Below are positions 5,324 to 55,238 of a stretch of DNA of 64,000 nucleotides, in pieces. The translations under genes and the position numbers were made by a program. Origin of the DNA: Sipunculus nudus (Eukaryota > Annelida > Sipuncula > Golfingiida > Sipunculidae); the NCBI GenBank assembly GCA_026874595.1, contig CM049307.1, positions 28,866,362 through 28,930,361 on the forward strand. The letters are read 5' to 3'. The notes under the pieces are model-generated. The model did not search any database, was not told the DNA's origin, and saw only the letters and a list, made by a program, of their open reading frames with translations. Within the stretch, counting starts at the first letter, position 1, and each line of letters starts with the position of its first letter.

Positions 5324-6117
5324 TGTTACAGGTGCTCTTTTTATTATGTGACACGAGCGTAACTCCTGTTGTGGCACTCGTGTCTTGCCGCGTATTATAT
5401 TCTATGTTTAATCCGTACTGGTTGAACTCTCGTTGTCATGTTTAGCCTTGGGATTTCACGCTTGGTCGTGGGTCACGTGATGAGCCTGGTATGTGGAGAT
5501 ACACAGCGCTGTTTTTCTGGAGAATTCCTGAAACGCGTGTAGACTGTGATGTTCAAGATCTTATAGACTATTCGAGAAGTGGAAAATTCTCGGCTTGAGG
5601 TGGGAAGGTATATAAAGGGGTGTGTTTTGTAACGGAAGAGAACAGCAGAGCAGATTCCAGCGGACGCAGAAGCGTGTGTCAGGACCTTATCCGACGAATG
5701 CGGCAATTATAGATATTCAAAGACCTTCTCCTCGATTTTATGAATTTGGACTTCAGTTTACTTTCTGGGTTGTTGCAAGAACTTTCAACTGGACTGTCAT
5801 TCTCCGAGAGTTTACATTTAAAGGACTTATCGTTGTGATGGTGTTGGTACCCAGGTACTGTGCACATTATTTTCTATGTGATTGTATTTATTTGTTGTTA
5901 TACCGCTGTTTTACTGTATAATTGTATTGATTTAGTGTATTGCAATGATTTAAGAATAAATTATAGTTATTTGTTAACAAAAATCCACTGACTTCTTTAT
6001 TCATTCCCCTAGACATTTCACGCTGCCTAGTGTTACAGAATCTGATTTTTTTTATCTTCATTACAAAACTTGTGTTTATCACACATACGTGATCTGTTTA
6101 TATTAGGTTCCGTAACA
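5324..6117 (+). repeat. 5' LTR of copy 1
   Basis: A 794-bp direct repeat of 11190-11920 with TG...CA ends. It contains a TATA box (TATATAAA, 5609-5616) and an AATAAA signal (5955-5960), so U3, R and U5 can be placed roughly. It keeps a segment of about 75 bp near 5945-6045 that the 3' LTR has lost. Confidence 0.92.
5609..5616 (+). promoter_or_regulatory. LTR TATA box
   Basis: TATATAAA within U3 of the 5' LTR, conserved at 11474-11481 in the 3' LTR. In LTR retrotransposons such a box positions transcription of the genomic RNA. Confidence 0.6.
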
Positions 6118-6123
6118 TAAAAT

Positions 6124-6141
6124 TGGGGGCTCGTCCGGGAT
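6124..6141 (+). promoter_or_regulatory. primer-binding site, tRNA-Pro
   Basis: TGGGGGCTCGTCCGGGAT is the exact complement of the 3' 18 nt of animal tRNA-Pro including CCA, the primer also used by murine leukaemia virus. It lies 6 nt after the LTR end. It is the site where minus-strand DNA synthesis starts. Confidence 0.92.
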
Positions 6142-6261
6142 GCTTAATAGTTTTCAAATTTATTAGGCCTTTACCTGGACATTGTTCTATCATACATTGT
6201 TTACAAGATTACATATTGTTTACAGGATTTATCTCAATTTTTTTTGTTATTGTTTTCAAAC

Positions 6262-7180
6262 TGAGACATTTGTTGACGATCCGGACCCTGATCAACTTGA
6301 ACAGTTGTCAAAAGACCAGTTGTTGCGTTTGGGACATTACTTGTGAAAAAAGCTTTGAGAAAGCCTGATATCATTGCTAAAATCATGCAAGATCTTATTA
6401 GAAAAGGTTTAATTGAAGAGATTGAAGTTGAAACATAAAAAAAATTATAGCCTTGCTATGCAATTGGAATTTAAAAAGTTAGAAATGCAACATTAGCTAG
6501 CATTAAAACAGTTAGAATTAGAAAAAGAAAAACAGAGAGAAGAGAGGGAAGAACATGAAAGGTTAGAAAGAGAAAGACTAGAAAAAGAAATAGAAAGAGA
6601 CAGACTAGAAAAAGAAAAAGAAATTAAGTTAAGACGACTGGATTTAGAAAGACTTAAAGTAGAACGTAGTCTAAGTGCTGCCCCAACTCACAGTTTTGAT
6701 GTTACTAAACACATTAGACTTGTCCCAACATTTCAAGAAAAAAAGGTTGATAAATATTTCTTACACTTTGGGAAGGAAGCTGAAAATTTAAAATGGCCCT
6801 GAGGAAAATTGGACTATGTTGTTACAAAGTGTATTGACTGGCAAGGCCAGAGAAATTTATACAGAGCTTTCAGTAGAAGCTGCTGCTGACTATGACCTGG
6901 TAAAACGGTTAATCCTAAAAGGTTACGAGTTAGTTCCAGAGGCTTACCGCCAGAAATTGAGAAATCGGGAAAAGCGCAAAGAACAGACCTACGTCGGGTT
7001 TGCTAGGACAAAAGATCAGTTGTTTGATCGCTGGTGTGGTTCTAAAAATGTAATGAAAGATTATGACAATTTGCGCCAGTTTGATTTTGCTTGAAGAATT
7101 TAAGCGCTGCATTAACGCAGATGTTAAAACTTTTCTCGATGAGAAAAGTCCTAAAACACTTGACATTGCGGCTCAATAAG
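6262..7180 (+). pseudogene. gag: gag (N-terminal, coiled-coil and capsid parts), broken
   Basis: By alignment with copy 2 the gag start codon is missing here: about 20 bp are deleted just before 6260. A SAP-like N-terminal segment, a long Glu/Lys/Arg-rich coiled-coil stretch (about 6470-6660) and a capsid segment follow. The capsid holds the motifs QSVLTGKARE and YELVPEAYRQ, similar to capsids of Gmr1-like elements and the related SCAN domains. Several stops and frameshifts interrupt it; the longest open piece is 6816-7094. In life this protein would form the particle that packages element RNA. Confidence 0.8.
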
Positions 7181-7389
7181 ATGATGATTATTCATTGTCA
7201 CACAAAAATGTCCTTTACTAGCAAATCAAACCAGTCATTCATAAATAAGAATGTAAAACAGTTTGGTTAAAAGAAGTTTACAGCGCAGTCTCTCAGTACT
7301 AGTAGTCCTGATAGTTCAGCAAAGCCTATAGATACATCTCATTCCACGTCCACTGTGTTTTAGTCCAACAAAGACCAGTATTTTCAAAG

Positions 7390-7855
7390 AAAATCTGTAA
7401 TTACTGCAAGAAGGAAGGTCATCTAATATCTGACTGCTGGAAACTTGCGAATAGACCAAATAGCAAACCTTCTGGTTTTGTTTCAAAATCTATGCATAGC
7501 ATAGTACAAGAGCCAGGCTCTTTTCATGTAAATAAGGGGTACAACTACTTTATTGGCTCCAGTAAAATAGTTTGATGCTACGGAGGCCCACGTGCCTTCT
7601 GAATCCAAAGGAAAATCCGTAGTTTGCGGGGTAAAAACCTCAGTTGATTCCTGCGAGGGATTAAATAAGGCTAGGTCCTTTCAAGACTCCTGCGAGGAGT
7701 GTTCTCTAAATAAGTCCTTTTATGACTCTTGGGAGAGTATTTCAAATGACGCCAGGTCCTATTATGACAAACAGAAGTTTATTTCTACTGAGGAAAATTC
7801 CTCTGTTGACTCCCATGAGGAGTTTGATGATAAAAAAGATGTAGATCCTTAGATG
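7390..7855 (+). pseudogene. gag: gag nucleocapsid zinc knuckle and linker
   Basis: A CCHC zinc knuckle (C-N-Y-C-K-K-E-G-H-L-I-S-D-C, encoded at 7396-7437) marks the nucleocapsid, which binds element RNA. After it, Ser/Asp-rich sequence is built of short repeats like CEECSLNKSFYDSWES, encoded at 7592-7852. The stretch is split by stops from the capsid part and from the protease ORF that begins at 7873. Confidence 0.75.
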
Positions 7856-7872
7856 ACTCTGAAACAGAGTTT

Positions 7873-8625
7873 ATGACTGACACCTTCAATGTCAGTTCTT
7901 TGTTTGATGAAGTTGAAGTAGTAGATTCCTCTCTTGACTCTAAAATGGAGTTATTTGAACCATTCATATATGATGGTTTTGTATCACTTTCGAGTGATTT
8001 TTCAGATTCAACCCCTATTAGAATTTTGAGGGACACTGGTTCAGGCCAGACTCTCATGTTAACAAACACTTTGCCATTTTCTGGTAGGTCCTTTACTGGT
8101 GCACATGCACTTGTTAATGGTGTTTTTTCAGACAGGCACACTTCATTTCCGCTTCACAGTATTCATTTAAATTCGGAATTGATTTCTTGGAATATTACTG
8201 TGGGCAAAAGAACTACTTTACCCTTTAAGGGAATTCAGTTGCTACTAGGCAATGATGTTGCAGGTGATAAAGTGCAGCCTGTAACGATAGTGACAGAAAA
8301 GCCGTCACTTGATCAGGACACTGATCTGGAAAGTCAGGAAATTCCTGGTTTGTATCCTTCATGTGCTGTAACTAGATCTATGGCCAAGAAAAACACAAAT
8401 GAGGATAATGGTCCAGATTATAACACTCTGGGAGTCACTAGTGACTCGTCTAACGACTCGCCCGTACAGGATGCAGCATTCTCAAGGTCAGAACTTATCG
8501 CGGAACAGCATAAGGACCCTGATATTTCATGTTTGTTTCCCAGGGCAGTTTCTAAAGATGAGCTGTCACAGAACCCAGTTTATTTCTATGTCAAAAATGG
8601 AGTGTTCATGCGTAAATGGCGTTAG
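7873..8625 (+). CDS. pol: retrotransposon aspartyl protease with start of integrase
   Basis: A 250-codon open frame. Residues 50-60 carry the active-site motif ILRDTGSGQT (DTG at 54-56), and residues 122-128 carry the second hallmark LLLGND. Together they identify a retroviral-type aspartyl protease, which cleaves Gag and Pol. The C-terminal third (from about residue 205, SELIAEQHKDP) is the start of the integrase N-terminal region, so protease and integrase were one polyprotein. The frame stops at 8623 where copy 2 continues, because about 115 bp of the integrase HHCC region are deleted in this copy. The catalytic aspartate is intact here, unlike copy 2. Confidence 0.85.
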   Translation: MTDTFNVSSLFDEVEVVDSSLDSKMELFEPFIYDGFVSLSSDFSDSTPIRILRDTGSGQTLMLTNTLPFSGRSFTGAHALVNGVFSDRHTSFPLHSIHLNSELISWNITVGKRTTLPFKGIQLLLGNDVAGDKVQPVTIVTEKPSLDQDTDLESQEIPGLYPSCAVTRSMAKKNTNEDNGPDYNTLGVTSDSSNDSPVQDAAFSRSELIAEQHKDPDISCLFPRAVSKDELSQNPVYFYVKNGVFMRKWR

Positions 8626-8639
8626 GTATAAATAAAACG

Positions 8640-9651
8640 TATCAGAAAGTTAGTACACATTTCTATTGGCCTAATCTCAGGAAAGATGTTATCATGCCAT
8701 ACATGCCAGACGGTAGGCAAGCCCAATCAGAATCCTCCTAAGGCCCCACTTAGGCCTATTCCTGCTTTCGAGGAACTATTCAGTAGGATTATTGTTGATT
8801 GTGTTGGACCACTGCCCAAAACAAAATCTGGACATGCATATTTGCTGACAATTATGTGCACATCTACCAGGTTCCCTTAGGCAATACCCTTGCGCGAAAT
8901 TAATGCCAAAAGTGTTGTCAAAGCTCTGACCAAATTTAACTTTTGGATAACCAAAATCCGTTCAGTCTGACCAAGGGTCTAATTTTATGTCTGGCTTATT
9001 CCAACAAGTTATGCTTGAGCTAGTTATAAAACAGTACAGCTTTTCGCCATACCATCCTGAAAGTCAGGGCGCCCTCGAGTGTTTTCACCAGACATTAAAA
9101 AAAATGATCAGAACTTATTGCTATGACACACAGAAAGACTGGAATAAAAGAATCCACCTATTTCTGTTTGCTGTCAGAGAATCCTTTCAAGAGTCCTTGG
9201 GTTTCAGTCACTTTTACTGCAGTATGTCTCAGACTTTCGCACTAAACTACACAATGCTTGTGAGATTGCAAAGTCAAATCTAAAATCTGCACAAAGTAAA
9301 ATGAAAACAAGGTATGACAAGCACACTGTAGGTCGAACGTTTGAGCCTGGTGAAAAGGTCCTTGCCTTACTTCCCATCCCTGGCAGACCTCTGCAAGCTA
9401 GGTATTTTGGTCCTTTCATTGTTGACAAGAAAGTCAATGATTTAAATTACATACTGTTGACACCAAATAGATGTAAGAAGAAACAACTGTGCCATGTTAA
9501 CATGTTGAAACCATATTATGACAGGAACAGCACATCAGATGTTGTACAAAATGTTACAGCTGTTAAATGTGTAAATACTGACCCTGACCGAGTTAAAGTA
9601 GATACTGATTGTAAGTGTGATGTAGACATTCAGTGTGGTACAGTACCATAA
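8640..9651 (+). pseudogene. pol: integrase, frameshifted
   Basis: Pieces in order: the end of the zinc-binding domain (CHTCQT, near 8694) and the first catalytic Asp in IIVDCVGPLP (near 8791-8820). The second Asp is in QSDQGSN (near 8964-8984). The catalytic Glu is in HPESQGALE (near 9053-9080). A C-terminal GPY/F module follows (YFGPF and CHVNMLKPYY, in the 9301-9651 frame). The domain joins element DNA to the host chromosome. It is broken by a stop at 8878, frameshifts, and a deletion of about 115 bp after GFS at about 9209 relative to copy 2. It lies before the reverse transcriptase, the diagnostic reversed order. Confidence 0.85.
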
Positions 9652-9750
9652 AAAAACTCAGACATACTTAAAAACCTTGATGCCAAACTGTCACACCTTA
9701 CCGCACAACAACAACAAGACCTCAAGAACCTGCTGCTGAATTATGAACAT

Positions 9751-10422
9751 TTGTTTAGTGACATTTCAACGCGAACTAACATGTTGTGGCATGACGTCGA
9801 TGTTGGCGAGGCAAGCGCAGTCAAGCAACATCCTAATAGACTGAATCCAGAAAAGCAAAAGTATCTACAAGATGAGATTCAATATTTGCTTGACAATGAT
9901 TTTATTGAACCTAGTAACAGTAACTGGAGTTTACCATGTATTCTTGTGCCAAAACCTGATGGAAGTTACCGTTTATGCACAGATTATCGAAAACTGAACT
10001 CTGTCACCAAGATTGACACGATCCCGATTCCGAGGATCGATGACTGTATTGATAGAGTCGGTAGCTCCAGATATGTCTGCAAGTTTGACTTGCTAAAAGG
10101 ATTCTGGCAAGTTCCGCTGACAGATCGAGCGAAAGAAGTGTCCGCATTTGTGACGCCGCAAGGACTATCCCAGTATAAAGTTATGCCGTTTGGCATGAAG
10201 AACTCTCCAGCCACGTTCCAGCGCCTCATCCATATGGTTGTCAAGGACATTCAGGGCTGCGACGCATATATTGATGACCTTATCGTGTACAGCGACACCT
10301 GGGAGAAACATCTGCAAATTCTTCGCGACCTCTTCGAAAGACTCAGTGAATCACGTCTGGTCGTCAACTTAGTGAAATCTGAGTTTTGTCATGCACAAGT
10401 AACATTTTTGGTTATATTGTAG
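9751..10422 (+). CDS. pol: reverse transcriptase, truncated by frameshift
   Basis: A 223-codon open frame with the ordered RT motifs: FIEPSNSNW, LVPKPDGSYRLCTDYRKLN, FDLLKGFWQVPL, TPQGLSQY, MPFGMKNSPATFQR and the catalytic YIDD (near 10267-10278) followed by LIVYSDTWEKHL. It copies element RNA into DNA. The active site is intact, but the frame is lost at about 10411 (ACATTTTTGG), one base short before the expected GHIVGQG. The identical one-base shortage occurs in copy 2. Confidence 0.9.
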   Translation: MFSDISTRTNMLWHDVDVGEASAVKQHPNRLNPEKQKYLQDEIQYLLDNDFIEPSNSNWSLPCILVPKPDGSYRLCTDYRKLNSVTKIDTIPIPRIDDCIDRVGSSRYVCKFDLLKGFWQVPLTDRAKEVSAFVTPQGLSQYKVMPFGMKNSPATFQRLIHMVVKDIQGCDAYIDDLIVYSDTWEKHLQILRDLFERLSESRLVVNLVKSEFCHAQVTFLVIL

Positions 10423-11067
10423 GGCAGGGTCAGGTAAAACCTGTTGATGCTAAAATAAGTGCTATTTCTGCATTTCCTAGACCAGAAAACAAAAAGCAAA
10501 TGATGGGTTTTCTTGGTATGGATACTACAGGAAGTTTTGTCCAAATGTTTCTGCTGTAGCTGAACCTTTGTCTAATTTTTTAAAGAAGAAACAAAAGTTT
10601 GTATGGAGTGTTCAGCGTGTAAATGCATTTAAGAATTTGAAAACAATTCTGCAAAGTTCACCAGTTTTAGCAGCTCTAGACTTTTCTGTACCTTTAAAGA
10701 TAGCTGTAGATGCTAGTAATACTGCTGCTGCTGCTGTGTTGTTACAAGAAGGCAATGATGGCATAGATCATTCAATTTGTTATTTCTCAAGAAAGATTAA
10801 TGCAAACCAGAAAAACTACTCCACTTTTGAAAAACAATGTTTGGCTTTGATTTTGGCGTTGCAACATTTTGAAGTTTATGTTACTTCATCAGTCAGGCCT
10901 ATCATTGTCTTCAGTGATCACAATCCCCTCACATTCATGAACAAGTTGAAGTGTAAAAATAAAAAAAAAAATGTTGAGATAATGTTTGTTCTTACAGGAT
11001 TAATCTCTTGATATCATGTACATTAAAGGGAAAGACAATGTACTTGCTGATGCTTATCGAGATGTTT
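10423..11067 (+). pseudogene. pol: RT thumb and RNase H, broken
   Basis: After the frame break, RT connection sequence (PRPENKKQ, near 10480) leads into RNase H. The open piece at 10568-11011 has the first Asp in IAVDASNTA, the Glu in STFEKQCLALILAL and the next Asp in VFSDHNPLTF, the catalytic set that degrades RNA in RNA/DNA hybrids. The C-terminal part (the LADSLSR region in copy 2) is damaged by an A-run at about 10960-10970. Confidence 0.82.
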
Positions 11068-11140
11068 ATGAAATGTTGTAAACAAGGTGTTTATGTAATG
11101 TTGTTTTTTGAGATGTAAAAATTTAGTGATTGTGATCGCA

Positions 11141-11174
11141 AAAAGAAAGTTTTCCGTGAAAACTTTCTTTTTTC
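11141..11174 (+). other. conserved hairpin before the polypurine tract
   Basis: AAAAGAAAGTTTTC and GAAAACTTTCTTTT form a perfect 14-bp stem with a CGT loop, just upstream of the polypurine tract. The same stem is kept in copy 2 (47183-47213) although the surrounding sequence has drifted. Confidence 0.7.
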
Positions 11175-11178
11175 TTAC

Positions 11179-11189
11179 AGCAGGGGGAG
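11179..11189 (+). promoter_or_regulatory. polypurine tract
   Basis: AGCAGGGGGAG lies directly before the 3' LTR (TGTTACAGG at 11190). This is the expected plus-strand primer site of an LTR retrotransposon. Copy 2 has AGAAGGGGGAG at the same place. Confidence 0.75.
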
Positions 11190-11920
11190 TGTTACAGGTG
11201 CCCTTTTTATTATGTGACACGGGCGTAACTCCTGTTGTGGCACTCGTGTCTGGCCGCGTATTATATTCTATGTTTAATCCGTACTGGTTGAACTCTCGTT
11301 GTTATGTTTAGCCTTGGGTTTTCACGCTTGGTCGTGGGTCACGTGATGAGCCTGGTATGTGGAGATACACAGCGCTGTTTTTCTGGAAAATTCCTGAAAC
11401 GCTGTAGACTGTGTTGTGCAAGATCTTATAGACTGTTCGAGAAGTGGAAAATTCTCGGCTTGAGGTGGGAAGGTATATAAATGGGTGTGTTTTAGAACGG
11501 AAGAGAACAGCAGAGCAGATTCCAGCGGACGCAGAAGCGTGTGTCAGGACCTTATCCGACGAATACGGCAATAATAGATATTCAAAGACCTTCTCCTGGA
11601 TTTTATACATTTGGACTTCAGTTTACTTTCTGGGTTGTTGCAAGAACTTTCCACTGGACTGTCATTCTCCGTGAGTTTACATTTAAAGGACTTATCGTTG
11701 TGATGGTGTTTGTACCCAGGTACTGTGCACATTATTTTCTATGTGATTGTATTTATTTGTTGTTATACCGCTGTTTTACTGTATAATTGTATTGATTTTG
11801 TGTATTGTAATGTTAAGGTTGTTTTAAGAAAAAATGTTACAGAATCTGATTTTTTTATCTCCATTACAAAACTTGTGTTCATCACACATACGTGATCTGC
11901 TTATATTAGGTTCCGTAACA
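11190..11920 (+). repeat. 3' LTR of copy 1
   Basis: A 731-bp direct repeat of 5324-6117 with the same TG...CA ends and TATA box. It differs by scattered substitutions and by loss of about 75 bp around 11830. Confidence 0.92.
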
Positions 11921-20075: not shown

Positions 20076-20598
20076 AAACATATACAAGTATTAAGCGTGG
20101 TTTGTCTACTTCCTTGGGTAATTGGTCATCCCCTTAGTTGTCCAATGAATAAAAAATTATTATATAAAAAGTATATAACAAATGAGCCGCGTTTTAATTG
20201 GTCTTACCCTCCAGGAGACCACTGAATATGTAATAAGCTAATTAGCATATGTAAGGGGCGACGGGTCATATATTACCACAATATTTTACCATAAGTGAGC
20301 GGTTATGAGGTGTAGAGGGTGTTAAACTCATGTCTGGTGATGCCTTGCTGAAAAAGAATGAATATTTATCCTTTTCAGGTTTTAGGATGTGTGATGCATA
20401 TGCCTTCGATCATGTTCTTTTATTCCGATTCTTCTCAGGGCAACCGATAATTATACCAAATATCAATAACATCGATTATTGATTCTTGTCAAAGCTATGG
20501 ATTATCATATGTGTCTTCTTGTATCGACTGATACATCTGGGCTATATAACGAGCCAGCTTATACATGTGAATGAAAGTCTTAAAAGGCACATATACTA
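20076..20598. other. no gene seen
   Basis: Unique AT-rich sequence between the left arm and the solo LTR. Confidence 0.4.
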
Positions 20599-20758
20599 TG
20601 TTGGGGAACCTAATATAAACAGATCACGTAGTCGTGACGAGCATAAATTCTGTTATGGAGATAAAAAAAATCAGATTCTGTAAAACTAGGAGGCGTGAAA
20701 TGTCTTGGGGAATGATTAAAGAAGTCATTGGTTTTTGTTAACAAATAATTATAATATA
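20599..20758 (-). repeat. solo LTR, U5 part
   Basis: Minus-strand LTR related to the Gmr1-like copies: its U5 end (inverse of GAACC...TGTT) and the segment around GTGAAATGTCTTGGGGAATG are kept. It stops abruptly at 20758 and resumes at 22805, on the other side of the Helitron. The rejoined sequence matches the intact LTRs at the same length with one substitution. Confidence 0.85.
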
Positions 20759-22804: not shown

Positions 22805-23444
22805 TTCTTAAAACAACCCTAACGTTTCAATACACTAAATCAATACAATTTCACAGTTAACAACAGTACAATAGCAAATCAATACAATTACACAGTTTAA
22901 TATATAAATTGTACAGTACCTGGATACCACCACTGTCACAGCGACAACAAGTCCTTTAAAACCAATAATCCACGTAAACAGTTCAAATAATCCAAAGTAA
23001 AGCTCTTGTAATAATCCCGAAAGCAAACTGGAGACAGGCCGCACTAAATCTGCATAGAATTCGTAGAATCCCTGAAAATACCGCATTTATCGGATAGGTC
23101 CAAAACTGACTCACACTCTTCTGTGTCCGCTGGAATATTTCTCTCTCCGCTCCCTCACGGGTCTAAACACAGCCCCTTATTCATAACTTTTTACCTCAAG
23201 CCGAGAACTTTCCATTTCACGAACTATCTAAAAGAACCCAACAATACATAATACACACGCCTAAAGAACATTACAAGACACGCGCTCATTGAGCGCGACC
23301 AGCCAAGAAAGTTCCAGATCAGCATGAACGCTGTCAGACCCCACGTGTGGGCCGGGCCAGCTCGCGCGTCTCCCATGGCAACGGACAATGCTAGCGCTAC
23401 ACAGACACATGTAAGACTGCTGCATAAAAAAGACATCTGTAACA
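22805..23444 (-). repeat. solo LTR, U3/R part
   Basis: Continuation of the LTR begun at 20599. Minus strand; U3 starts TGTTACAGATGTC at 23444. The 3' flank ACTG (23445-23448) matches ACTA (20595-20598) at three of four bases, a plausible decayed 4-bp target duplication. The absence of an internal region marks it as a solo LTR made by LTR-LTR recombination. Confidence 0.85.
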
Positions 23445-32395: not shown

Positions 32396-33379
32396 TAGGT
32401 GTTACATTACGTTAGGAGTATTGCAGGTGCGGAATCCTGACACTCCGTAAAACATTTCATACACACGGAGATACTTTAATTAAGGAATGTTGATACCGAG
32501 AGATTGAGAGATTTAGAGAGATTTATACAAGCTAATGTAAGTGTAATGAGATACATCCATATGCTGTTCATTGTCTCCATTTGTAATAAGGTGTAGATTT
32601 TCTCGAGGTTTTGCATCCAAGCTTTGGACCCTAAGTGATACTTGCTGTCAAGTGTTACGACGGAGAACTTAACGCTTGTCATCACGTCGGCCGAGTGTCC
32701 TGCGCTTGTGGTTGCTTTGAGGGAAACAGTTACAAAAGAAAATGGTGAACATTCAACATAACTTTTAGCAGAAAGACTGGGCAAGTGACACTTCATAATA
32801 CAGTGGTTTATCTTAGGCTCAGAATGAGAGCATCGCCTTGTGTTTAGAACAAAACTGCTCTTTCGTCCGATATGCCTGTACGGCGTCTGTGTCCTTTGTG
32901 TAAACTAGACTTCGTCGGGATCACCTTATACATTATTACCCTTGAGGGAAGATTTCAGTGCCAGCTTTCCTAACCTCATGTGAGTGCATGATCAGTCGGC
33001 CTGAAGAAGGTTGTCGTGAAAACAATAGTTTCACGTATGCAAAATAGAATGGAAAAGAAAGTGTATCCTGGGTGTTTAAAGCCTAGAGCTATGATGCATA
33101 GGCTTTCGATTAGGAGCCTAGTTCTTTTAATTTCATAAAGTACAAGTATTTTTTATTTTTTATGTACTTGAGAAGTATGTTGAGAATCTCTTTAATAACG
33201 AACTTTGCAATAGGTGAAGTACTTTGCTAAAACATAAGTGTTTTGCAGTGGTATATGTACCTGTAAGTGGTGCAAGTACTTTAACTAGTGTAAATACTGT
33301 ATATTGGTTTAAGGACACATATTTCTTTCAGAGTATTAAAATATACGTTTGGTGTAAGTGATCTGGTGTGTGTCTGTAT
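32396..33379. other. no confident gene; one 106-codon minus-strand frame
   Basis: The minus-strand frame at 32796-32476 starts at a real ATG and ends in a hydrophobic segment (WMYLITLTLACINL). It has no recognisable domain, and frames of this size are expected a few times by chance in this window. Confidence 0.25.
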
Positions 33380-33674
33380 TGTTACGAAGACAAATTTTGA
33401 GGGGAAAACATTGGGCCGATCCCGGTTTCGAACCCATGTTGGTGGCGCACATTAGGGGTATGATTCTCCATTTGGGTGCGAGAGGTCCCGGGTTTATATC
33501 CCGGACGAGCCCCCATTTTGTTACGAAGACAATTTTTTGAGAGAAAAACATTGGGCCGATCCCGGTTTCGAACCCATGTTGGTGGCGCACAAGTCCGGCG
33601 TACCAACCGCTTCGCTAGAAAAGCAAGCTTCACTAGCGAGACAGTTCGGACTGCTTTTATGTCACCCCGTAACA
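33380..33674 (-). mobile_element. TRIM-like LTR element carrying a tRNA-Pro copy
   Basis: On the minus strand: a complete 156-bp LTR (33674-33519, TGTTACGGGG...CTTCGTAACA), then AAA, then the tRNA-Pro primer-binding site continuing into 45 more nt of tRNA complement. A 5'-truncated second LTR (33451-33380) follows, ending with the same CGTAACA. GTAT flanks both ends (33376-33379 and 33675-33678), a 4-bp target duplication. No other internal sequence is present. The ends and duplication show that the chimera integrated as one unit. Confidence 0.85.
33453..33515 (+). pseudogene. reverse-transcribed partial tRNA-Pro (UGG)
   Basis: Matches animal tRNA-Pro from about nucleotide 13 to the 3' end. 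It includes D-loop AGGGGTATG, anticodon loop TTTGGGT (anticodon TGG), variable and T arms, acceptor strand and the post-transcriptional CCA (33513-33515). Only about 12 nt of the 5' end are missing. Differences from the usual animal sequence: two bases in the anticodon stem, C56 to T, and A58 to T (33497). Position 58 is the m1A that normally blocks reverse transcriptase. CCA and location at the primer-binding site show it came from a mature primer tRNA, not a tRNA gene. It lacks the 5' acceptor strand and cannot be a functional tRNA. Confidence 0.88.
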
Positions 33675-34265
33675 GTATTAACTGTCCAACTTGCCACAAG
33701 AACCGTCTGTACTTTGTGTTGAGAGCAACTGGTTGAGTCTTTAGTCTGTTTTAAGTGTATTTTGTAGCGTTTGTCGTGTAATCCTTAAATGCGACTAAGG
33801 AGATGTACAGATTATAAAAATATTTCAAGCTGTCAGCTTAAGGGGGCCTGGGACGGAGCAATGGACCTAAAGTCAGTCGTCACGGCCTAGATTTATACTC
33901 TGTGTATTCGTACGAGAAAAAAGTTAAGGCCATACCCAAAAAGAAATTGTTCTACAGACTTTAGAACCAAAATATAGTGCGAGCAAGTGATATTTTATAT
34001 TTTATTATTTTTTTTTCATAATGACCGGTCGAGAAACTATGTGACATTTTGCAAGTTTTTTTTTTTAATCGGTTCGGTTCCTAAACATGGTGCATCCTCA
34101 GGTAAGTTGAGGATTTGGGCGTGGTAAAAAATGAAATAAAAAAATCTGCTCTAAACTTTGCTGACACACGCTCCCATGCCACCGAATTCTCTATACAAAT
34201 AGATATTCGCCGGGATGCTTTCCGTGGAGTTCTTTCGTGTAGCATCCCCGTGCCCTCTAACAAGG
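33675..34265. other. no gene seen
   Basis: Unique sequence between two mobile elements. Confidence 0.4.
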
Positions 34266-41058: not shown

Positions 41059-41654
41059 TGTTACAGATGTCTGTTTTATTGTGAGCTGTTGACATATCTC
41101 TTTTATTGTTCGCTGTTGACATTCTGATTCGTGTTTGGGTCAAGCCCTGGGCGTTGCTATGCTACAGCGTTCCGTGTTCTAGCTGGCCGGGTGCGGCCAA
41201 AGTGTGAAAAGACAGCGGTCATGCTAGTCTGGGGCTTTATCGCCTGGCCGGCCCACTGGTGAACCCTGATATGTAGAAACACAGCATTCATTGTTCTAGA
41301 TATTTGCTGTAACGTGTGTACTATTGGGTTCTTTGGATTGTTCGAAAAATGGAAAGTTCTCAGCTTGAGGTGAAACGTTATTAATAAGGGGCTGTGTTTT
41401 AGAGCCAGGAGAGAGAAGAGAAATATTCAGCGGACACAGAAGTGTGTAATTGTATTGATTTAGTGTATTGTAATGTGAGGATTGTTTTAAGAATAAATTA
41501 TAATTATTTGTTAACAAAAAAACACTGACTTCTTTATTCATTCCCCTAGACATTTCACGCTGCCTAGTGTTACAGAATCTGAATTTTTTTATCTCCATTA
41601 CAAAATTTATGTTCGTCACGACTACGTGATCTGTTGATATTAGGTTCCGTAACA
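41059..41654 (+). repeat. 5' LTR of copy 2
   Basis: 596 bp, TGTTACAG...TTCCGTAACA. Compared with copy 1 it lacks about 250 bp around R/U5, and its TATA-box region reads TTATTAATAAGG, so the promoter is weakened. Confidence 0.88.
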
Positions 41655-41660
41655 TAAAAT

Positions 41661-41678
41661 TGTGGGCTCGTCTGGGAG
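41661..41678 (+). promoter_or_regulatory. degenerate tRNA-Pro primer-binding site
   Basis: TGTGGGCTCGTCTGGGAG matches the tRNA-Pro site at 15 of 18 bases. Confidence 0.75.
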
Positions 41679-41787
41679 GCATAATAGTTTTGAAAATTTA
41701 TTAGCCCTTGCCCTAGACACATTGTTTACATAGCATTGTTTACAGGATTTATCTCAGTGTTTTTTGTAATTGTTTTAACATCTTAAC

Positions 41788-41964
41788 ATGGCAGATTTCA
41801 AACCTGAGACATTTCTTAAAGATCCCAACCCTGATCAACTTGAACAGTTGACAAAAGATCAGTTGTTGCGTTTGGGACAAGACTTAGGGCTAGGTGTGAA
41901 AAAAGCTTTGAGAAAGACTGATATCATTGCTAAAATCATGCAAGATCTAGCAAATGTTTAATTG
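41788..41964 (+). CDS. gag: gag N-terminal fragment
   Basis: The ATG at 41788 opens a 58-codon frame with the motif LTKDQLLRLGQDLGLG, a SAP-like helical module found at the N-terminus of Gag in Gmr1-like elements. It keeps the start codon that copy 1 has lost. A deletion near 41950 causes the stop. Confidence 0.6.
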
Positions 41965-42490
41965 AAAAGAGTGAAGTGGAAACATAAAAATGACAGCCTT
42001 GCTATGCAGTTGGAATTAAAAAAAGATAGAAATGCAACACGAGCTAGCATTAAAGCAGTTAGAATACGAAAAAGAAAAACAAAGAGAAGAGAGGGAATTA
42101 GGAAAACAAAAAGAAATAGAAAGAGAAAGACTAGAAAAAGAAAAAGAGTTAAAACGACTGGAGTTAGAAAAGGAATATTGGACTATGCTATTACAAAGTG
42201 TATTGACTGGAAAAGCCAGAAAAATTTATACAGAGCCTTCCGTAGAAGCCGCTGCTGACTATGACCAGGTTAAACGGTTAATCCCAAAAGGTTATGAGTT
42301 AGTTCCGGAGGCTTACCGCCAACAATTCAGAAAATTATGAAAGATATGAAAGATTATGACAATATGCGCCAGTTGATTTTGCTTGAAGAATTAAAGCGCT
42401 GCAGTAACGCAGATGTTCAAACTTTCTGGATGAGAAAACCCCTGACACTTGACATTGCTGCTCAATTAGCTGATGATTATTCATTAACAC
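41965..42490 (+). pseudogene. gag: gag coiled coil and capsid, broken
   Basis: A Glu/Lys/Arg coiled coil followed by the capsid motifs QSVLTGKARK and YELVPEAYRQ, open at 42032-42340. Relative to copy 1 about 170 bp between coiled coil and capsid are missing (EKEYWTMLLQ junction). The capsid C-terminal part (LTLDIAAQLADDY) runs directly into the TRIM insertion at 42491. Confidence 0.8.
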
Positions 42491-42648
42491 TGTTACGGGG
42501 TGACATAAAAGCGGACCGAACTGTCTCGCTAGTGAAGCTTGCTTTGCTAGCGAAGCGGTTGGTTCGCCGGACTTGTGCGCCATCGACCTGGGTTCGACTC
42601 CCGGATCGGCCCAGGAATTTTTCCCCTCAACAATTTGTCTTCGTAACA
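42491..42648 (+). repeat. TRIM LTR 1 with Pol III-like boxes
   Basis: 158 bp. It contains TAGCGAAGCGGTTGG (42548-42562, A-box-like, foldable as a D arm GCGA/TCGC). It also has GGTTCGACTCC (42591-42601, perfect B box) within a T-arm-like stem CTGGG/CCCGG. No acceptor stem pairs. Confidence 0.85.
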
Positions 42649-42754
42649 AAATGGGGGCTCGTCTAATGTGACAATTAACTTTGTGGCCCAGGAAATAAGC
42701 CCACCAAAGTGTGACTCATGGGATAATTAGGCAGAACGCTCTTAAAAGGGGGTG

Positions 42755-42888
42755 TGTTACGGGGTGATATAAAAGCGGACCGAAGTGCTAGCGAAGCGGT
42801 TGGTTCGCCGGACTTGTGCGCCACCGACCTGGGCTCGACTCCCGGATCGGCCCAGGATTTTTCCCCTCAACAATTTGTCTTCGTGACA
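42755..42888 (+). repeat. TRIM LTR 2
   Basis: 134 bp. Like LTR 1 but lacking about 24 bp between CCGAA and GCTAGCG; the end is mutated to CGTGACA. Confidence 0.85.
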
Positions 42889-43005
42889 AAATGGGGACTC
42901 GTCCTACGTGACAGTTAACTTTGTGGCCCAGGGAATAAGCTCACCAAAGTGTGACTCCTGGGATAATTAGTCTTGTTCTGATAGCAGAACGCTCTTAAGG
43001 GGGGG

Positions 43006-43110
43006 TTTGCTAGCGAAGCGGTTGGTTCGTCGGACTTGTGCGCCACCGACCTGGGTTCGACTCCCGGATCGGCCAAGGATTTTTCCCTATTACAATTTGT
43101 CTTCGTAACA
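43006..43110 (+). repeat. TRIM LTR 3, 5'-truncated
   Basis: Begins at TTTGCTAGCG, lacking the first 50 or so bases; the 3' end CTTCGTAACA is intact and followed by the ACAC target duplication. Confidence 0.85.
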
Positions 43111-43780
43111 ACACACAAAATGTCCTTTACTAGCAAATAAAACCAGTCATTCACAAACAAGAATGTAAATCAGTAAGGTCAAAAGAGGTTTAAGGCGCAG
43201 TCATCCAGTACTAGTAGTCCTGATAGTTCAGCATAGTCCATTGCTACACCTCAGTCCACGTCCACTGTGTCTGAATCGAACCAAGGCCAGTCTTTTTCAA
43301 AGAAAATTTGTAATTACTGCAAAAAGGAAGGTCATCTAAAAATCGACTGCTGGAAACTTGCAAAAAAAACAAAATGTAAAGCTTCTGGTTTTGTTTCAAA
43401 ATCTATGCATAGCAAAATACAAGAGCCAGGCTCTTTTCATGTTAATAAGGGGTACAACTCCTTTATTGACTCTACAAAAGAGTTTGATGCTACGGAGGTC
43501 AACGTGCTGTCTGACTCCTAAGAAAAATCCGCAGCTTGCGGGGTAAAAACCTCAGTTGATTCCTACGAGGTATTTAATAAGGCTAGGTCCTTTCAACTTC
43601 TGCGAGGAGTATCCTTTAAATAAGACTAAGTCCTTTTATGACTCTTGCGAGAGTATTTCAAATGAGGCCAGGTCCTCTTATGACAAACAGAAGTTTGTTT
43701 CTGCTGAGGAAAATTCCTCTGTTGACTCCCATGAGGAGTTTGATGGTAAAAGGATGTAGATTCCTCTAATAACTCTGAAA
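43111..43780 (+). pseudogene. gag: gag nucleocapsid and linker
   Basis: The frame at 43267-43521 carries the CCHC zinc knuckle (C-N-Y-C-K-K-E-G-H-L-K-I-D-C, encoded at 43309-43350). A Ser/Asp-rich linker with short internal repeats follows, interrupted by stops near 43519 and 43757. Confidence 0.75.
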
Positions 43781-44369
43781 AGAGAGTTTATGACTGACAC
43801 TATCAGTGACAGTTCTTTGTTTGGTGAAACTGAGGTAGTAGATTCCTCTCCTGACTCCGAATTGGAGATATTTGAGCCATTCATACACTTTTAAGTAATT
43901 TTTCAGATTCTACCCTATATGAATTTTGAGGGTCACTGGTTCAGTCCAGACTCTCATGTTAGCGAACACTTTGCCATTTTCTAATAGGTCTTTTACTGGT
44001 GCACACGCACTTGTTAATGATGTGTTTTCAGACAAACACACTTCAGTTCCGCTTCACAGTATACATTTAAAGTCAGATTTGATATCTTGGAATATTACTG
44101 TTGGCATAAGAACTGCTTTACCTTTTAAGGGAATTTAGTTGCTGCTAGGCAATGATGTTGAAGGTGACAAAGTACAGTCCGTACCAATAGTGACACAAAA
44201 GCCGTCACTTGATCAGGACACCGATCCTGAAAGTCAGGAAATTCCTGGTTTGTATCCTTCATGTGCTGTAACAAGATCTATGGCCAAGAATAACACATAT
44301 GAGGATAATGGTCCAGAAAATAACACTCTGGGAGTCACTAGTGACTCGTCTAACGACTCGCCCGTATAG
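43781..44369 (+). pseudogene. pol: aspartyl protease, active-site Asp lost
   Basis: Aligned with copy 1, the active-site motif reads RVTGSVQTLML (near 43927), so the catalytic Asp has become Val. A stop at 44136 splits it from the second motif LLGND (encoded from about 44142). The TRSMAKNN linker follows. The protease is certainly inactive. Confidence 0.8.
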
Positions 44370-44389
44370 GATGCAGCGTTTTCAAGGTC

Positions 44390-45534
44390 TTTCAAGAAAT
44401 TATCACAGAACAGCATGAGGTCTCTGATATTCCATGTTGGTTTCCCAGTTTCTAAAGATGACCTGTAACAGAACCCAGTTTGTTTCTATGTTAAAAATGG
44501 AGTGCTTATGCGTAAATGGCGACAACCTGGTGTATGTGATGATGAGTGGGCCATCAAACATCGAATAGTAATGCCCAAAAGTTATCGCAATTAAATTGTA
44601 AGCATGGCACATGAGGCTCCTTTGTCTGGCCATTACGGTATAAATAACTCTTATCAGAAAGTTAATACACACTTCAATTGGCCTAACCCTAGGACTGTTG
44701 TTGTAAATCATGCCATACGTGCCAGATGGTAGGCATCCCAATCAGAATCTTCCTAAGCCCCACTTAGGCCTATTCCTGCTTTCGATGAACCTTTTAGTAG
44801 GATTATTGTTGACTGTGTTGGACCACTGCCCCCCCTCCCCCCCCCCCCCCCAAAAAAAATCTGGAAATGAATACCTGCTGACAATTATGGGCGCATCTAC
44901 CAGGTTCCCTGAGGCAATTCCATTGCGCAAAATTATTGCCAAAAGTGTTGTCAAAGCTCTGACCAAGTTTATTACATCTTTTGGATTACCAAAATCCGTC
45001 CAGTCTGACCAAGGGTCTAATTATATGTCTGGCTTATTCCAGGAAGTTATGCTTGAGCTAGGTATAAAACAGTACAGCTCTTCGCCATACCATCCTGAAA
45101 GTCAGAGCGCCCTCTAGCATTTTCACTAGACATTAAAAAACATGATTAGGACCTATTATTATGACACACAGAAAGACTGGGATGAAGGAATCCACCTGTT
45201 GCTTTTTGCTGTCAGAGAATCCTTTCAAGAGTCCTTGGGTTTTAGTCCCTTTGAACTAGTTTTTGGACACTCAGTTCTCGGTCCATTCAAACTGCTTGAA
45301 GAAAAACACTTGTGTGAAAATCCTGATTCTCTTAGTTTGTTGCAGTATGTCTCAGACTTTCGCACTAACCTACACAATGCTTGTGAGATTGCAAAGTCTT
45401 ATCTACAATCTGCACAAAGTAAAATGAAAACAAAGTATGACAAGCACACTGTAAGCAGGACGTTTGACCCAGGTGAAAGGTCCTTGCCTTACTTCCCATC
45501 CCTGGCAGACCTCTGCAAGCTAATATACAAGTAG
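44390..45534 (+). pseudogene. pol: integrase, broken
   Basis: Keeps zinc-domain sequence that copy 1 lacks (APLSGHYG, near 44612-44640). The catalytic core has IIVDCVGPLP, QSDQGSN and HPESQSAL, the DD-E triad order. A poly-C/poly-A expansion at 44828-44867 disrupts the frame after the first Asp, and a stop at 45115 follows the Glu motif. The 45142-45534 frame retains the region between core and GPY/F that copy 1 lost, but the GPY/F module itself is largely deleted near 45530. Confidence 0.82.
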
Positions 45535-45688
45535 GTATTTAGGCGTAAGAAGAAACAACTATGCCATGTTAACATGTTGAAACCATATGATGGCAGAAAT
45601 AGCACAACAGATGTTATACATAATGTTACTGCTGTTAATTGTGTAAAAAATGACCCTGACCCAGTTTAAGTAGATACTTATTGTAAGT

Positions 45689-46490
45689 GTGATGTCGACA
45701 TTCAGTGTGGAACAGTACCACTTAAAAACTCAGAAGTGCTTAATAACCTGTCACACCTTACCGCACAACAACAACAAGACCTCAAGAACCTGCTGGGGAA
45801 TTATGAACATTTGTTTAGTGACATTCCAACGCGAACTAACATATTGTGCCATGACATCGATGTTGGCGAGGCAAGCGCAGTCAAGCAGCATCCTTATAGA
45901 CTGAATCCAGAAAAGCAAAAAGTATCTACAGGATGAGATTCAGCATTTGCTGGACAATGATATTATTGAATCTTGTAACAGTAACTGGGGTTCACCATGT
46001 ATTCTTGTGCTAAAACTTGATGGAAGTTACCGCGTATGTGCACACATTATCGAAAACTGAACTCTCTCACCAAGACTGACACGTTCTAAGGATCGATGAT
46101 TATATTGATAGAGTCGGTAGCTCCAGATATGTCTCCAAGTTTGACTTGCTAAAAGGATTCAGGCAAGTTCCGCTGACAGAACGAGCAAAAGAAGTGTCCG
46201 CATTTGTGACGCCGCAAGGACTGTACCAGTATAAAATTATGCCGTTTGGCATGAATAACTCGCAAGCAACGTTCCAGCGCCTCATCCATATGGTTGTCAA
46301 GGACATTCAGGGCTGCGACGCATATATTGATAACCTTATCGTGTACAGCGACACCTGGGAGAAACATCTGCAAATTCTTCTCGACCTCTTCGAAAGACTC
46401 AGTGAAGCACGTCTGACCATCAGCTTAGTAAAATCTGAGTTTTGTCATGCACAAGTTACATTTTAGGTCATATTGTAGGGCAGGGTCAAG
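45689..46490 (+). pseudogene. pol: reverse transcriptase, active site mutated
   Basis: Motifs as in copy 1 (KQHPYRLNPEKQK, FRQVPLTERAKEVSAFVTPQ, MPFGMNNSQATFQR). The catalytic motif reads YIDN (near 46323-46334) instead of YIDD, so one metal-binding Asp is lost. Frameshifts lie near 45920 and 46035. At 46461 the frame breaks (ACATTTTAGG) at the same codon and by the same one base as in copy 1. Confidence 0.82.
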
Positions 46491-47107
46491 TAAAACCTGT
46501 TGATGTTAAAATAGGTGCTATTTTTGCATTTCCTAGACCAGAAAACAAAAAGCAAATAATGCGTTTTCTTGGTATGGTTGGATACTACAAGAAGTTGTGT
46601 CCAATTTTTTTCTGCTGTAGCTGAACCTTTGACTAATTTGTTAAAGAAGAAACAAAAGTTTGTATGGAATTTCAGAATTTGAAAGCAATTCTGCAAAGTT
46701 CACCAGTTTTGGTAGCTCAAGACTTTTCTGAACCTTTTAAGTTAGCTGTAGATGCTAGTGATACTGCTGGTGCTGTGTTGTTACAAGGAGGCAATGATGG
46801 CATAAATCATCCAATTAGTTATTTTTCAAGAAAGTTTAATGCAAACCAGAAAAACTACTCCACTATTGAAAAGGAATGTTTGGCTTTGATTTTGGCATTG
46901 CGTTATTTTGAAGTTTATGTTACTTCTTCAGTCAAGCCTATCAATGTCTTCAGTGATCACAATCCCCTTACGTTCTTGAACAAATTGAAGTGTAAAAATC
47001 AAAGATTGCTGGGATGGAGTTTGTTTTTACAGGATTACAATCTTGAAATCAGACACATTAGAGAGAAAGACAATGTACTTGCTGATAGCTTATCGAGATG
47101 TTTTTGA
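46491..47107 (+). pseudogene. pol: RT thumb and RNase H
   Basis: The GHIVGQG frame resumes (open to 46624), then an RNase H frame runs from 46664 to 47107. It has LAVDASDTAGAVLLQ, STIEKECLALILAL, VFSDHNPLTF and the terminal HIREKDNVLADSLSR, the full catalytic set including the last Asp. This domain is better preserved than in copy 1; only about 50 bp before it are missing. Confidence 0.85.
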
Positions 47108-47182
47108 AATGTTGTAAACGAGATGTTTATGTAATGTTGTAAAGTGTTGAGATATTGTAAAGATTTAGTGATTGTGATCGAA

Positions 47183-47213
47183 AAAAGAAAGTTTTCCGAG
47201 AAAACTTTCTTTT
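47183..47213 (+). other. conserved hairpin before the polypurine tract
   Basis: AAAAGAAAGTTTTC / GAAAACTTTCTTTT stem as in copy 1, with the loop sharing bases with the stem edge. Confidence 0.65.
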
Positions 47214-47220
47214 TTCTTAC

Positions 47221-47231
47221 AGAAGGGGGAG
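47221..47231 (+). promoter_or_regulatory. polypurine tract
   Basis: AGAAGGGGGAG directly before the 3' LTR. Confidence 0.7.
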
Positions 47232-47519
47232 TCTTACAGATGTCTGTTTTATTGTGAGCTGTTAACATGTCTTTTTTATTGTGCGCTGTTGACATTCTGA
47301 TTCGTGTTTGGCTCAAGCCCTAGGCGTTGCTATGCTACAGCGTTCCTTGTTCTAGCTGGCCGGGTGCGGCCCACGTGTAAACACAGTGGTCATGCTAGTC
47401 TGGTGCTTTCTCGCCTGGCCGAGCTTTGACGGCCCACTTATGAACCCTGATATGTAGAAACACAGAATTCGTTGTTCTAGATGTTTCCTGTAACGTGTGC
47501 TATTGGGTTCTTTGGATTC
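47232..47519 (+). repeat. 3' LTR of copy 2, truncated
   Basis: Matches the first 290 or so bases of the 5' LTR. The first dinucleotide is TC instead of TG. Similarity ends at TTCTTTGGATT, where the 93-bp minisatellite begins. Confidence 0.85.
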
Positions 47520-54404: not shown

Positions 54405-55238
54405 TGTTACGGAACCTAATAGCAACAGATCACGTATGTGTGATGGACATGATTTTTTTCAAGGAGATATAAAAAATCAGATTCTGTAACACCAGGCAGA
54501 GTGAAATGTCTAGGGGAATGAATAAAGAAGTCAGTGGTTTTTTTTGTCAACAAATAACTATAATTTGTTCTTAAACAACCCTAACATTACAATACACTAA
54601 ATCAATACAATGACACAGTATAACAGCAAATCAATAAAATCACACAGTGAAATAAAATGAGTGCACAATACCTGGATACCACCACTGCCACAACGATATA
54701 GGTCATCTAAAATGTATAAGCCGGCGAAGAGTTCACACGAATTCTCCCGGAGAATAACAGTCCAATGTAAAGCTCTTGTAACAATACAGAAAGTAAACTT
54801 GAGACAGGCAGCACTAAATTGTAAAGTGTTAGTAATAGTAGAATCCCTGAAATTACCGGATAATCGGATGATCCCACACGTCTGTGTCCGCTGGAATATT
54901 ATCTCACCTCTCCCCGCTTTAAAACACAGCCCCCTATTTTATAACTTCTCGCCCCAAGCCGAGAATTTTCCACTTCTGGAACAGTCTAAAGGATCTAACA
55001 TAATACACAGTAAACACGCGTTACAGGAATCATCTAGAAAAAAACATCACTGTGTCTCTACATACCGGGGTGCACACGTGAGCTCGCCACGGCTCGACCA
55101 GGCGAGAAAACCCCAAGCTAGCATGACAACGAGAGTTCAACCAGTTCGGATTAAACCGAGAGTGCAACACGCGGCCAGGCAAGAGCGCTACAACACGAGT
55201 TACGCCCGTGTCACACAATAAAAAAGGGACCTGTAACA
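54405..55238 (-). repeat. complete solo LTR of the Gmr1-like family
   Basis: 834 bp, minus strand, from TGTTACAGGTCC (55238) to TTCCGTAACA (54405). ATAC occurs on both flanks (54401-54404 and 55239-55242), a perfect 4-bp target duplication. The 186-codon plus-strand frame inside (54661-55221), the longest but two in the window, is antisense to U3/R and not a gene. Confidence 0.92.

What the first reader, a model, noticed from the sequence alone, without database searches (positions are those of the whole stretch)
33380..33674. LTR mini-element whose internal region is a read-through copy of its own tRNA primer
The element consists of LTR, AAA, the tRNA-Pro primer-binding site extended by 45 nt into the tRNA body, then a truncated second LTR, all inside a GTAT target duplication. 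Normal plus-strand synthesis stops after 18 nt of tRNA. Here it seems to have run to about tRNA nucleotide 13 and then switched template into the LTR, with one extra A at the junction (CCCCTA-A-TGTGCGCC). Intact outer termini and duplication show the aberrant product was a proper integration substrate. tRNA insertions are known in two-LTR circle junctions of retroviruses; a chromosomally integrated, TSD-flanked example making up the whole internal region is unusual to me.
Basis: partly seen in the sequence, partly recalled or inferred. Interest (0 to 1): 0.9.

Follow-up and report, generated by a model that had tools for sequence, protein, structure and literature searches.

The report
Mobile element carrying its copied primer
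A tiny jumping element was copied too far into the transfer RNA that primes its own copying, and the faulty product was still inserted neatly into a chromosome; the same genome holds other such failures, several of them ending where that transfer RNA is expected to carry chemical marks.

Summary
On the minus strand, 33380-33674 reads LTR (156 bp), AAA, 63 nt complementary to mature tRNA-Pro including CCA, one extra A, then the last 72 bp of a second LTR, inside a GTAT duplication. The family is Helenus-like and shares tRNA-Pro priming, LTR ends and 4-bp duplications with a Gypsy element in the window. Read-through of the primer tRNA past the usual stop (m1A58) is the best explanation. The copy is unique among the matches seen, but the kind of event is not: 17 loci carry tRNA-Pro copied past nt 58. 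Nt 58 is changed in 5 of 16 scored; 6 of 17 end at nt 38, next to the expected m1G37. L075 repeats the layout with different junctions; in L104 tRNA-Pro seems to have misprimed inside the Gypsy. A sister class (44 loci, plus 5 Gypsy-Helenus chimeras) stops at nt 59 but then continues as an inverted LTR, as if the cDNA end had paired with the tRNA-like arm of the Helenus LTR. Copied tRNAs are known from a retroviral circle and an HIV provirus. New variant of a known kind; template switching versus end joining is unresolved.

The parts
33376..33379 (.). target-site duplication GTAT, left copy
33380..33451 (-). 3' partial LTR, LTR positions 85-156
33452..33452 (-). one extra base at the tRNA-LTR junction (A on the sense strand)
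33453..33515 (-). complement of mature tRNA-Pro from CCA to nt 13; the first 18 nt are the ordinary primer-binding site (33498-33515)
33516..33518 (-). AAA spacer between LTR and primer-binding site
33519..33674 (-). full 5' LTR of a Helenus-like TRIM, 156 bp, with box B GGTTCGAAACC
33675..33678 (.). target-site duplication GTAT, right copy
42491..43111 (-). ordinary relative: tandem Helenus-like array with three LTR stretches and two internal regions
5324..11920 (+). tRNA-Pro-primed Gypsy-like element, probable source of the enzymes: LTRs 5324-6117 and 11190-11920, PBS 6124-6141, RVT_1 domain within 9751-10422
   Evidence: link to Helenus from junctions in L039, L114-L116, L118, L119

Best explanation
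The element is an integrated aberrant reverse-transcription product of a Helenus-like TRIM, probably made by the enzymes of a tRNA-Pro-primed Gypsy. Plus-strand synthesis copied the LTR and then the primer tRNA still joined to the minus strand. It did not stop at m1A58 but went on to nt 13, leaving T at the place of A58. The end was then connected to LTR position 85, most likely by a jump onto minus-strand LTR DNA, with one extra A. The molecule had normal outer ends and was integrated with a 4-bp duplication. Shown: structure, identity with mature tRNA-Pro including CCA, duplication, recurrence at other loci, excess of changes at nt 58, clustering of ends at nt 38. Inferred: the modifications in this species, the order of events, the acceptor strand, second-strand completion, and the Gypsy as helper.
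For: Structure and duplication. CCA present in the element, absent from 29 of 29 tRNA-Pro genes held. 16 of 18 matches to a tRNA-Pro-with-CCA pattern are read-through loci, 2 are tRNA genes; reversed control 0; one more, L117. Nt 58 changed in 5 of 16 loci scored against 22 of 528 cells at the other positions 43-76, P 3.7e-4, 0.013 after correction. Last copied nucleotide nt 38 in 6 of 17, P 1.2e-6 under a uniform model. L075 has the same layout between ATAT copies. L039 runs from a Helenus LTR through tRNA to nt 10 into a Gypsy LTR. L104 has tRNA complement starting where Gypsy sequence reads AAAAATGG. m1A58 as the normal stop, a minor stop at nt 37, and m1A58 in primer tRNA-Pro: PMC13191261 section 10. 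m1G37 and m1G9 in yeast tRNA-Pro: PMC10608323 passages.
Against: 11 of 16 scored loci keep A58, so the misincorporation signal is partial. C56T occurs in one tRNA-Pro gene (L024), so it may come from the template; C31A and G30C are unexplained. Five of 17 ends lie at nt 42-43, where I know of no modification. The window end at nt 13 is not next to a known block. L108 can be read as passing nt 37 with one inserted base. The two LTR stretches differ by 3 substitutions, so they need not come from one template. Modifications were not measured.
Confidence: 0.75

Rival explanations
1. The tRNA was copied past m1A58 by reverse transcriptase, but the LTR-tRNA end was joined to a broken second LTR cDNA by host end joining, as in two-LTR circles or concatemers, before integration. 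No template switch took place.
For: Junctions show little shared sequence: one extra base in the window, a 10-nt filler in L002. Partial LTRs begin at different places. Tandem LTR arrays are common in the family.
Against: It does not by itself give normal outer ends and 4-bp duplications at the window and L075. The inverted sister class joins at one place set by 8 complementary bases, which fits priming. None of this excludes it for the direct class.
Confidence: 0.27
2. A heritable extended primer-binding site: a lineage whose genome carries more tRNA complement, like the primer over-extension sequences of lentiviruses.
For: The window and L002 share C56T and A58T. Over-extension sequences exist in lentiviruses and spumaviruses (PMC13191261 section 10).
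Against: The ordinary 18-nt site followed by ordinary internal sequence has 356 matches, and both Gypsy copies seen in the window leave the tRNA sequence after 18 nt. Read-through loci differ in end point, flanks and LTR family.
Confidence: 0.06
3. Recombination or insertion of a genomic tRNA-Pro gene into an LTR element.
For: tRNA-Pro genes are abundant here, in tandem arrays.
Against: CCA is present in the element and in 0 of 29 genes held; the segment starts exactly at the primer-binding site.
Confidence: 0.02

Closest known systems
Helenus, TRIMs with tRNA-like LTRs (TRIMp3), Kojima 2024, PMC10886601 (outline, Results and passages read)
   Same: Miniature LTR element, PBS and PPT in a short internal region, 4-bp duplications in animals, PBS shared with Gypsy; tRNA-Pro is among the primers named for bivalve Helenus.
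   Different: The window copy has no ordinary internal region or PPT. The paper reports no complementarity between the tRNA-like LTR part and the PBS; in this family 8 nt are complementary. The words inverted, palindrom, strand transfer and read-through do not occur in its main text.
[quoted passage not shown]
   Same: A reverse-transcribed tRNA lies between two LTRs, lacking its 5' bases.
   Different: Unintegrated circle, tRNA-Gly described as a spurious primer; here the cognate primer, integrated, with a duplication.
tRNA-Gly beside an HIV provirus (PMC12220202; outline and passages)
   Same: Integrated reverse-transcribed mature tRNA with CCA next to an LTR.
   Different: Outside the provirus, non-cognate tRNA; its authors favour self-primed copying and separate insertion.
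Plus-strand strong-stop products of HIV at m1A58 and nt 37 (PMC13191261, section 10)
   Same: Same step of reverse transcription, same kind of stops.
   Different: Seen as cDNA; the nt-37 product is described there as not active in transfer, whereas here such products ended up in chromosomes.
biv-TRIM (PMC6934838; abstract and first part of Results)
   Same: Animal TRIM with canonical, solo and tandem forms.
   Different: TDRs of 202-218 bp and no unambiguous PBS; sequence relation to the present family was not tested.

Membership tests
Helenus (the family of the element) | miniature element: two LTRs and a short non-coding internal region | tested here: met
   ordinary copies L003, L005, L006, L007: LTR about 156 bp, internal about 119 bp
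Helenus (the family of the element) | tRNA-derived sequence with boxes A and B in the LTR | tested here: inconclusive
   box B GGTTCGAAACC and a box A-like TAGCGAAGCGGTTGG read by eye; Rfam and ARAGORN made no tRNA call in the LTR
Helenus (the family of the element) | PBS and PPT between the LTRs | tested here: met
   ordinary copies: TGGGGGCTCGTCCGGGAT and AAGAGGGGGTG. Not met in the window copy itself, which has the PBS but no PPT
Helenus (the family of the element) | 4-bp target duplications | tested here: met
   window GTAT; L003 GTAT, L005 ACTG, L006 ATAT, L007 ATAT, L100 ACGT (the other 7 of 12 LTR pairs printed there are mostly parts of arrays and do not match)
Helenus (the family of the element) | same primer site as an autonomous Gypsy of the genome | tested here: met
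   window Gypsy 5324-11920, PBS TGGGGGCTCGTCCGGGAT
Helenus (the family of the element) | transcription by RNA polymerase III | not testable with these tools
   no expression data
Retroviral two-LTR circle with tRNA insert | unintegrated circle with U5-tRNA-U3 junction | tested here: not met
   integrated, GTAT on both sides, second LTR lacks its first 84 bp
Primer read-through product of plus-strand synthesis | LTR-spacer-PBS continuing in register into the tRNA body, with CCA | tested here: met
Primer read-through product of plus-strand synthesis | traces of modified bases (nt 58, stop at nt 37) | tested here: inconclusive
   window has T58; as a group 5 of 16 changed at nt 58 and 6 of 17 end at nt 38; the modifications themselves were not measured

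The most novel reading that the evidence does not exclude
The Helenus LTR carries a mimic of the primer tRNA's T arm that catches plus-strand strong-stop DNA at the second strand transfer, its own and that of the helper Gypsy. This yields a recurrent class of integration-competent inverted elements (LTR-PBS-inverted LTR arm). Read-through products such as the window element are the sister class, and together their junctions record where tRNA modifications stopped the enzyme.
Probability: 0.5. Interest if true: 0.75.

Novelty: new variant of a known kind. Interest (0 to 1): 0.62.

Why it matters
The second strand transfer of reverse transcription is known mainly from retroviruses in the laboratory. 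Here one genome holds many integrated failures of that step, from two interacting element families, with end points that fit tRNA modifications. This would allow modification-dependent stops to be read from genome sequence, would show that cDNA extended past m1A58 can still be integrated, and would let the helper of a satellite element be identified from junctions that join the two. It also bears on how tRNA sequences come to lie inside retroelements, an open question for TRIMs with tRNA-like LTRs and, as I recall without a source from these calls, for tRNA-derived SINEs.

Tried and rejected
Origin from a tRNA gene was rejected (0 of 29 genes held encode CCA; other flanks). A self-amplifying family of this layout was looked for: apart from the window only L075 shows LTR-AAA-tRNA-partial LTR with matching flanks, and its junctions differ. 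At first I took the extended matches for read-through; on inspection 44 of 62 continue as inverted LTR and 6 of 62 as tRNA. Arm identity did not prove self-copying: within 0.90, between 0.87 for 10 inverted loci, much like 0.91 and 0.86 for 12 ordinary LTR pairs, so copying of the same strand and of a sister strand both fit. A phage-collection search gave no match. Rfam gave no tRNA match. Pfam gave no gag or pol family for the short pieces of L039 and L110; the L104 and L110 pieces were placed by DNA match to the window Gypsy. Ten paper searches listed no title or abstract that I could recognise as describing integrated, duplication-flanked read-through or fold-back TRIMs; this covers only that open-access library, those terms and the rows shown.

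Full report
Observation. The minus strand of 33380-33674 reads: 156-bp LTR, AAA, 63 nt of tRNA-Pro complement beginning TGG (the CCA end), one extra A, the last 72 bp of the LTR, between GTAT copies. The first 18 nt of the tRNA part are the ordinary primer-binding site (PBS); the other 45 continue in register to tRNA nt 13. Against tRNA-Pro(TGG) there are four differences: A58T, C56T, C31A, G30C. The two LTR stretches differ by 3 substitutions and 1 gap over 72 bp.

What family it is. The genome (1.43 Gb, unnamed) holds a large family of LTR - AAA - PBS - about 100 bp - PPT - LTR elements, often as tandem arrays (where 40 of 3468 candidates were scored). Size, layout, box B in the LTR, 4-bp duplications and the shared PBS fit Helenus, described by Kojima in 2024 (PMC10886601; outline, Results and passages read). 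The tRNA-like nature of the LTR rests on boxes read by eye; ARAGORN and Rfam made no tRNA call there. The window also holds a Gypsy-like element, 5324-11920: LTRs 96% identical over the longest aligned piece, ATAT on both sides (in AT-repeat surroundings, so weak), an 18-nt tRNA-Pro PBS at 6124-6141, and a reverse transcriptase domain in 9751-10422 (RVT_1, E 1.1e-33). A second Gypsy copy, about 41443-47256, is interrupted by an ordinary Helenus-like array at 42491-43111.

Where the tRNA sequence came from. One search scored 40 of 149 candidates: the element and 39 others. I held 29 of those others; ARAGORN finds a tRNA-Pro gene in 29 of 29. Read, none of the 29 encodes CCA and none has T58; one, L024, has T56. 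The element carries the mature CCA end joined to the LTR spacer, as expected of a copied primer.

Recurrence. Pattern AGGTCCCGGGTTNNNATCCCGGACGAGCCCCCATT with up to 3 mismatches gave 18 matches, reversed control 0. Two are tRNA genes (L020, L111). The other 16, the window among them, carry tRNA-Pro complement past nt 58; searches added L117, making 17. Last tRNA nucleotide copied: nt 38 in L075, L002, L004, L106, L108, L113; nt 39 in L105; nt 37 in L112; nt 34-35 in L110; nt 43 in L104, L107, L109; nt 42 in L073 and L117; nt 13 in the window; by eye nt 10 in L039 (after a 2-nt deletion) and about nt 3 in L008 (with a 27-nt insert), where the script had cut at nt 20 and nt 38. L108 can also be read as passing nt 37 with one inserted base. 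Six of 17 at nt 38 has P 1.2e-6 under a uniform model that treats the loci as independent. The five ends at nt 42-43 have no such explanation. The pattern itself needs tRNA sequence to about nt 45, so earlier stops would not have been seen.

Position 58. Of 16 loci scored (L117 came later and is not included), nt 58 is changed in five: T in the window, L002, L004 and L110, G in L104. The other positions of nt 43-76 show 22 changes in 528 cells; P 3.7e-4, or 0.013 after correction for 34 positions. A57G in L075, L008 and L107 matches a tRNA-Pro(CGG) gene with G57 (L111). Eleven of 16 keep A58, so the signal is partial.

Papers on the step. A 2026 review (PMC13191261, section 10 read) states that HIV plus-strand synthesis stops mainly at m1A58, with minor stops at nt 55, 54 and 37, and that m1A58 is present in the primer tRNAs it lists, tRNA-Pro among them. 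Yeast tRNA-Pro has m1G37 and m1G9 (PMC10608323, passages). m1A causes arrest and misincorporation that depend on the 3' neighbour (PMC4787781, abstract and passages). That the present species has these marks is inferred.

Layouts that bear on mechanism. L075 is LTR - AAA - tRNA to nt 38 - end of the LTR, between ATAT copies in AT-rich surroundings. L039 goes from a Helenus LTR through tRNA to nt 10 into the end of a Gypsy LTR and its leader. L104 carries Gypsy sequence (94.7% to window 8278-8597) ending AAAAA; the Gypsy continues TGG there, but L104 continues with tRNA-Pro complement to nt 43 and then a partial Helenus LTR. This looks like mispriming at AAAAATGG. L110 joins Gypsy sequence (92.5% to window 9738-10018) to tRNA complement without such a TGG. 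L002 has a 10-nt filler between tRNA and the next LTR; L004, L073 and L105 run into other sequence after the tRNA.

The sister class. Pattern GGGTTNNNATCCCGGACGAGCCCCCATNNTGTTAC with up to 3 mismatches gave 62 matches, control 0. By what follows the PBS: 44 continue as inverted LTR arm, 10 as ordinary internal region, 6 as tRNA, 2 as neither (L089 and L101, which the script put with the inverted class at scores of 9 or less). The 44 include near-duplicates such as L045/L046 and L067/L068. In this class the LTR is followed by the spacer, the 18-nt PBS, and the reverse complement of an LTR from its box B back toward its U3 end. The last 8 nt of the PBS, TCCGGGAT, are complementary to ATCCCGGA in the LTR; Kojima reports no such complementarity for the families studied there. 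Of nine distinct loci of simple layout, seven have perfect 4-bp duplications (L045, L050, L052, L059, L060, L063, L064; L052 and L060 are ATAT) and two match at 3 of 4 (L053, L074). L046 duplicates L045 and was left out, as were the other, more complex or arbitrarily bounded loci printed, of which some match (L054, L067) and some do not (L051, L071, L047).

Chimeras. Pattern AACATAAAATTGGGGGCTCGTCCGGGANTTGAACC gave 9 matches: L109, L112 and L113 (known read-through), L117, and five in which a Gypsy LTR and PBS continue as an inverted Helenus arm: L114, L115, L116, L118, L119. L119 has GTAT on both sides, with a full Gypsy LTR at its left end. L115 has GGTA on both sides, its left end being a Helenus LTR start. 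The outer ends of the other three were not settled. So such products can form between two molecules. For scale, the ordinary 18-nt PBS followed by ordinary internal sequence has 356 matches at up to 3 mismatches; the patterns differ, so any ratio is rough.

Reading. After a correct stop at m1A58 the plus-strand end should pair with the PBS copy at the minus-strand end. Here the tRNA-like arm of the Helenus LTR offers a second partner, which would give the inverted class. When the stop fails, the enzyme goes on into the tRNA and halts further on, which would give the class of the window element. Where the outer ends could be read, 4-bp duplications were found in the window, L075, seven of nine inverted loci, L115 and L119. 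The switch, the acceptor strand and the completion of the second strand are inferred. End joining of cDNA pieces is the main rival for the second junction of the direct class.

Known and not known. A copied tRNA between the LTRs of a retroviral circle, a copied tRNA beside an HIV provirus, and stops at nt 58 and 37 are in print. In the ten searches listed I recognised no report of integrated, duplication-flanked read-through copies in a TRIM, nor of the inverted class.

Noticed in passing
L045-L103 (44 loci), e.g. L063, L064, L050: Inverted elements: LTR, spacer, 18-nt PBS, then an LTR arm in reverse from its box B to its U3 end, seven of nine simple ones with perfect 4-bp duplications.
   Followed up: partly
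L114, L115, L116, L118, L119: Chimeras in which a Gypsy LTR and PBS continue as an inverted Helenus LTR arm; L119 and L115 have matching 4-bp flanks.
   Followed up: partly
L104:1-354 and window 8570-8640: tRNA-Pro complement begins where Gypsy internal sequence reads AAAAATGG, which looks like mispriming inside the helper.
   Followed up: partly
window 41443-47256: Second Gypsy-like copy interrupted by an ordinary Helenus-like tandem array at 42491-43111.
   Followed up: no
window 54399-55244, 22805-23235 and 20597-20758, minus strand: Further stretches similar to the Gypsy LTR at 70-87% identity.
   Followed up: no
L020 (C5:29681781): A tRNA-Pro(AGG) gene whose 3' flank CAATGTTTTCCTCTCAA closely resembles the U5 side of the Helenus LTR.
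   Followed up: no
G000 C14:19.08-19.31 Mb and C5:41.62-41.73 Mb: Clusters of tRNA-Pro genes in tandem arrays, paired with tRNA-Gln and tRNA-Val genes respectively.
   Followed up: no
L073, L104, L107, L109, L117: Five of 17 read-through copies end at nt 42-43, at the foot of the anticodon stem; no modification known to me explains it.
   Followed up: no
window 42400-43300, L002, L008, L044: Some Helenus-like copies match tRNA-Pro over only 12-13 nt of the PBS (TGGGGGCTCGTCCAACGTG or TGGGGGCTCGTCTAATGTG); a genome count was asked for and never answered.
   Followed up: no
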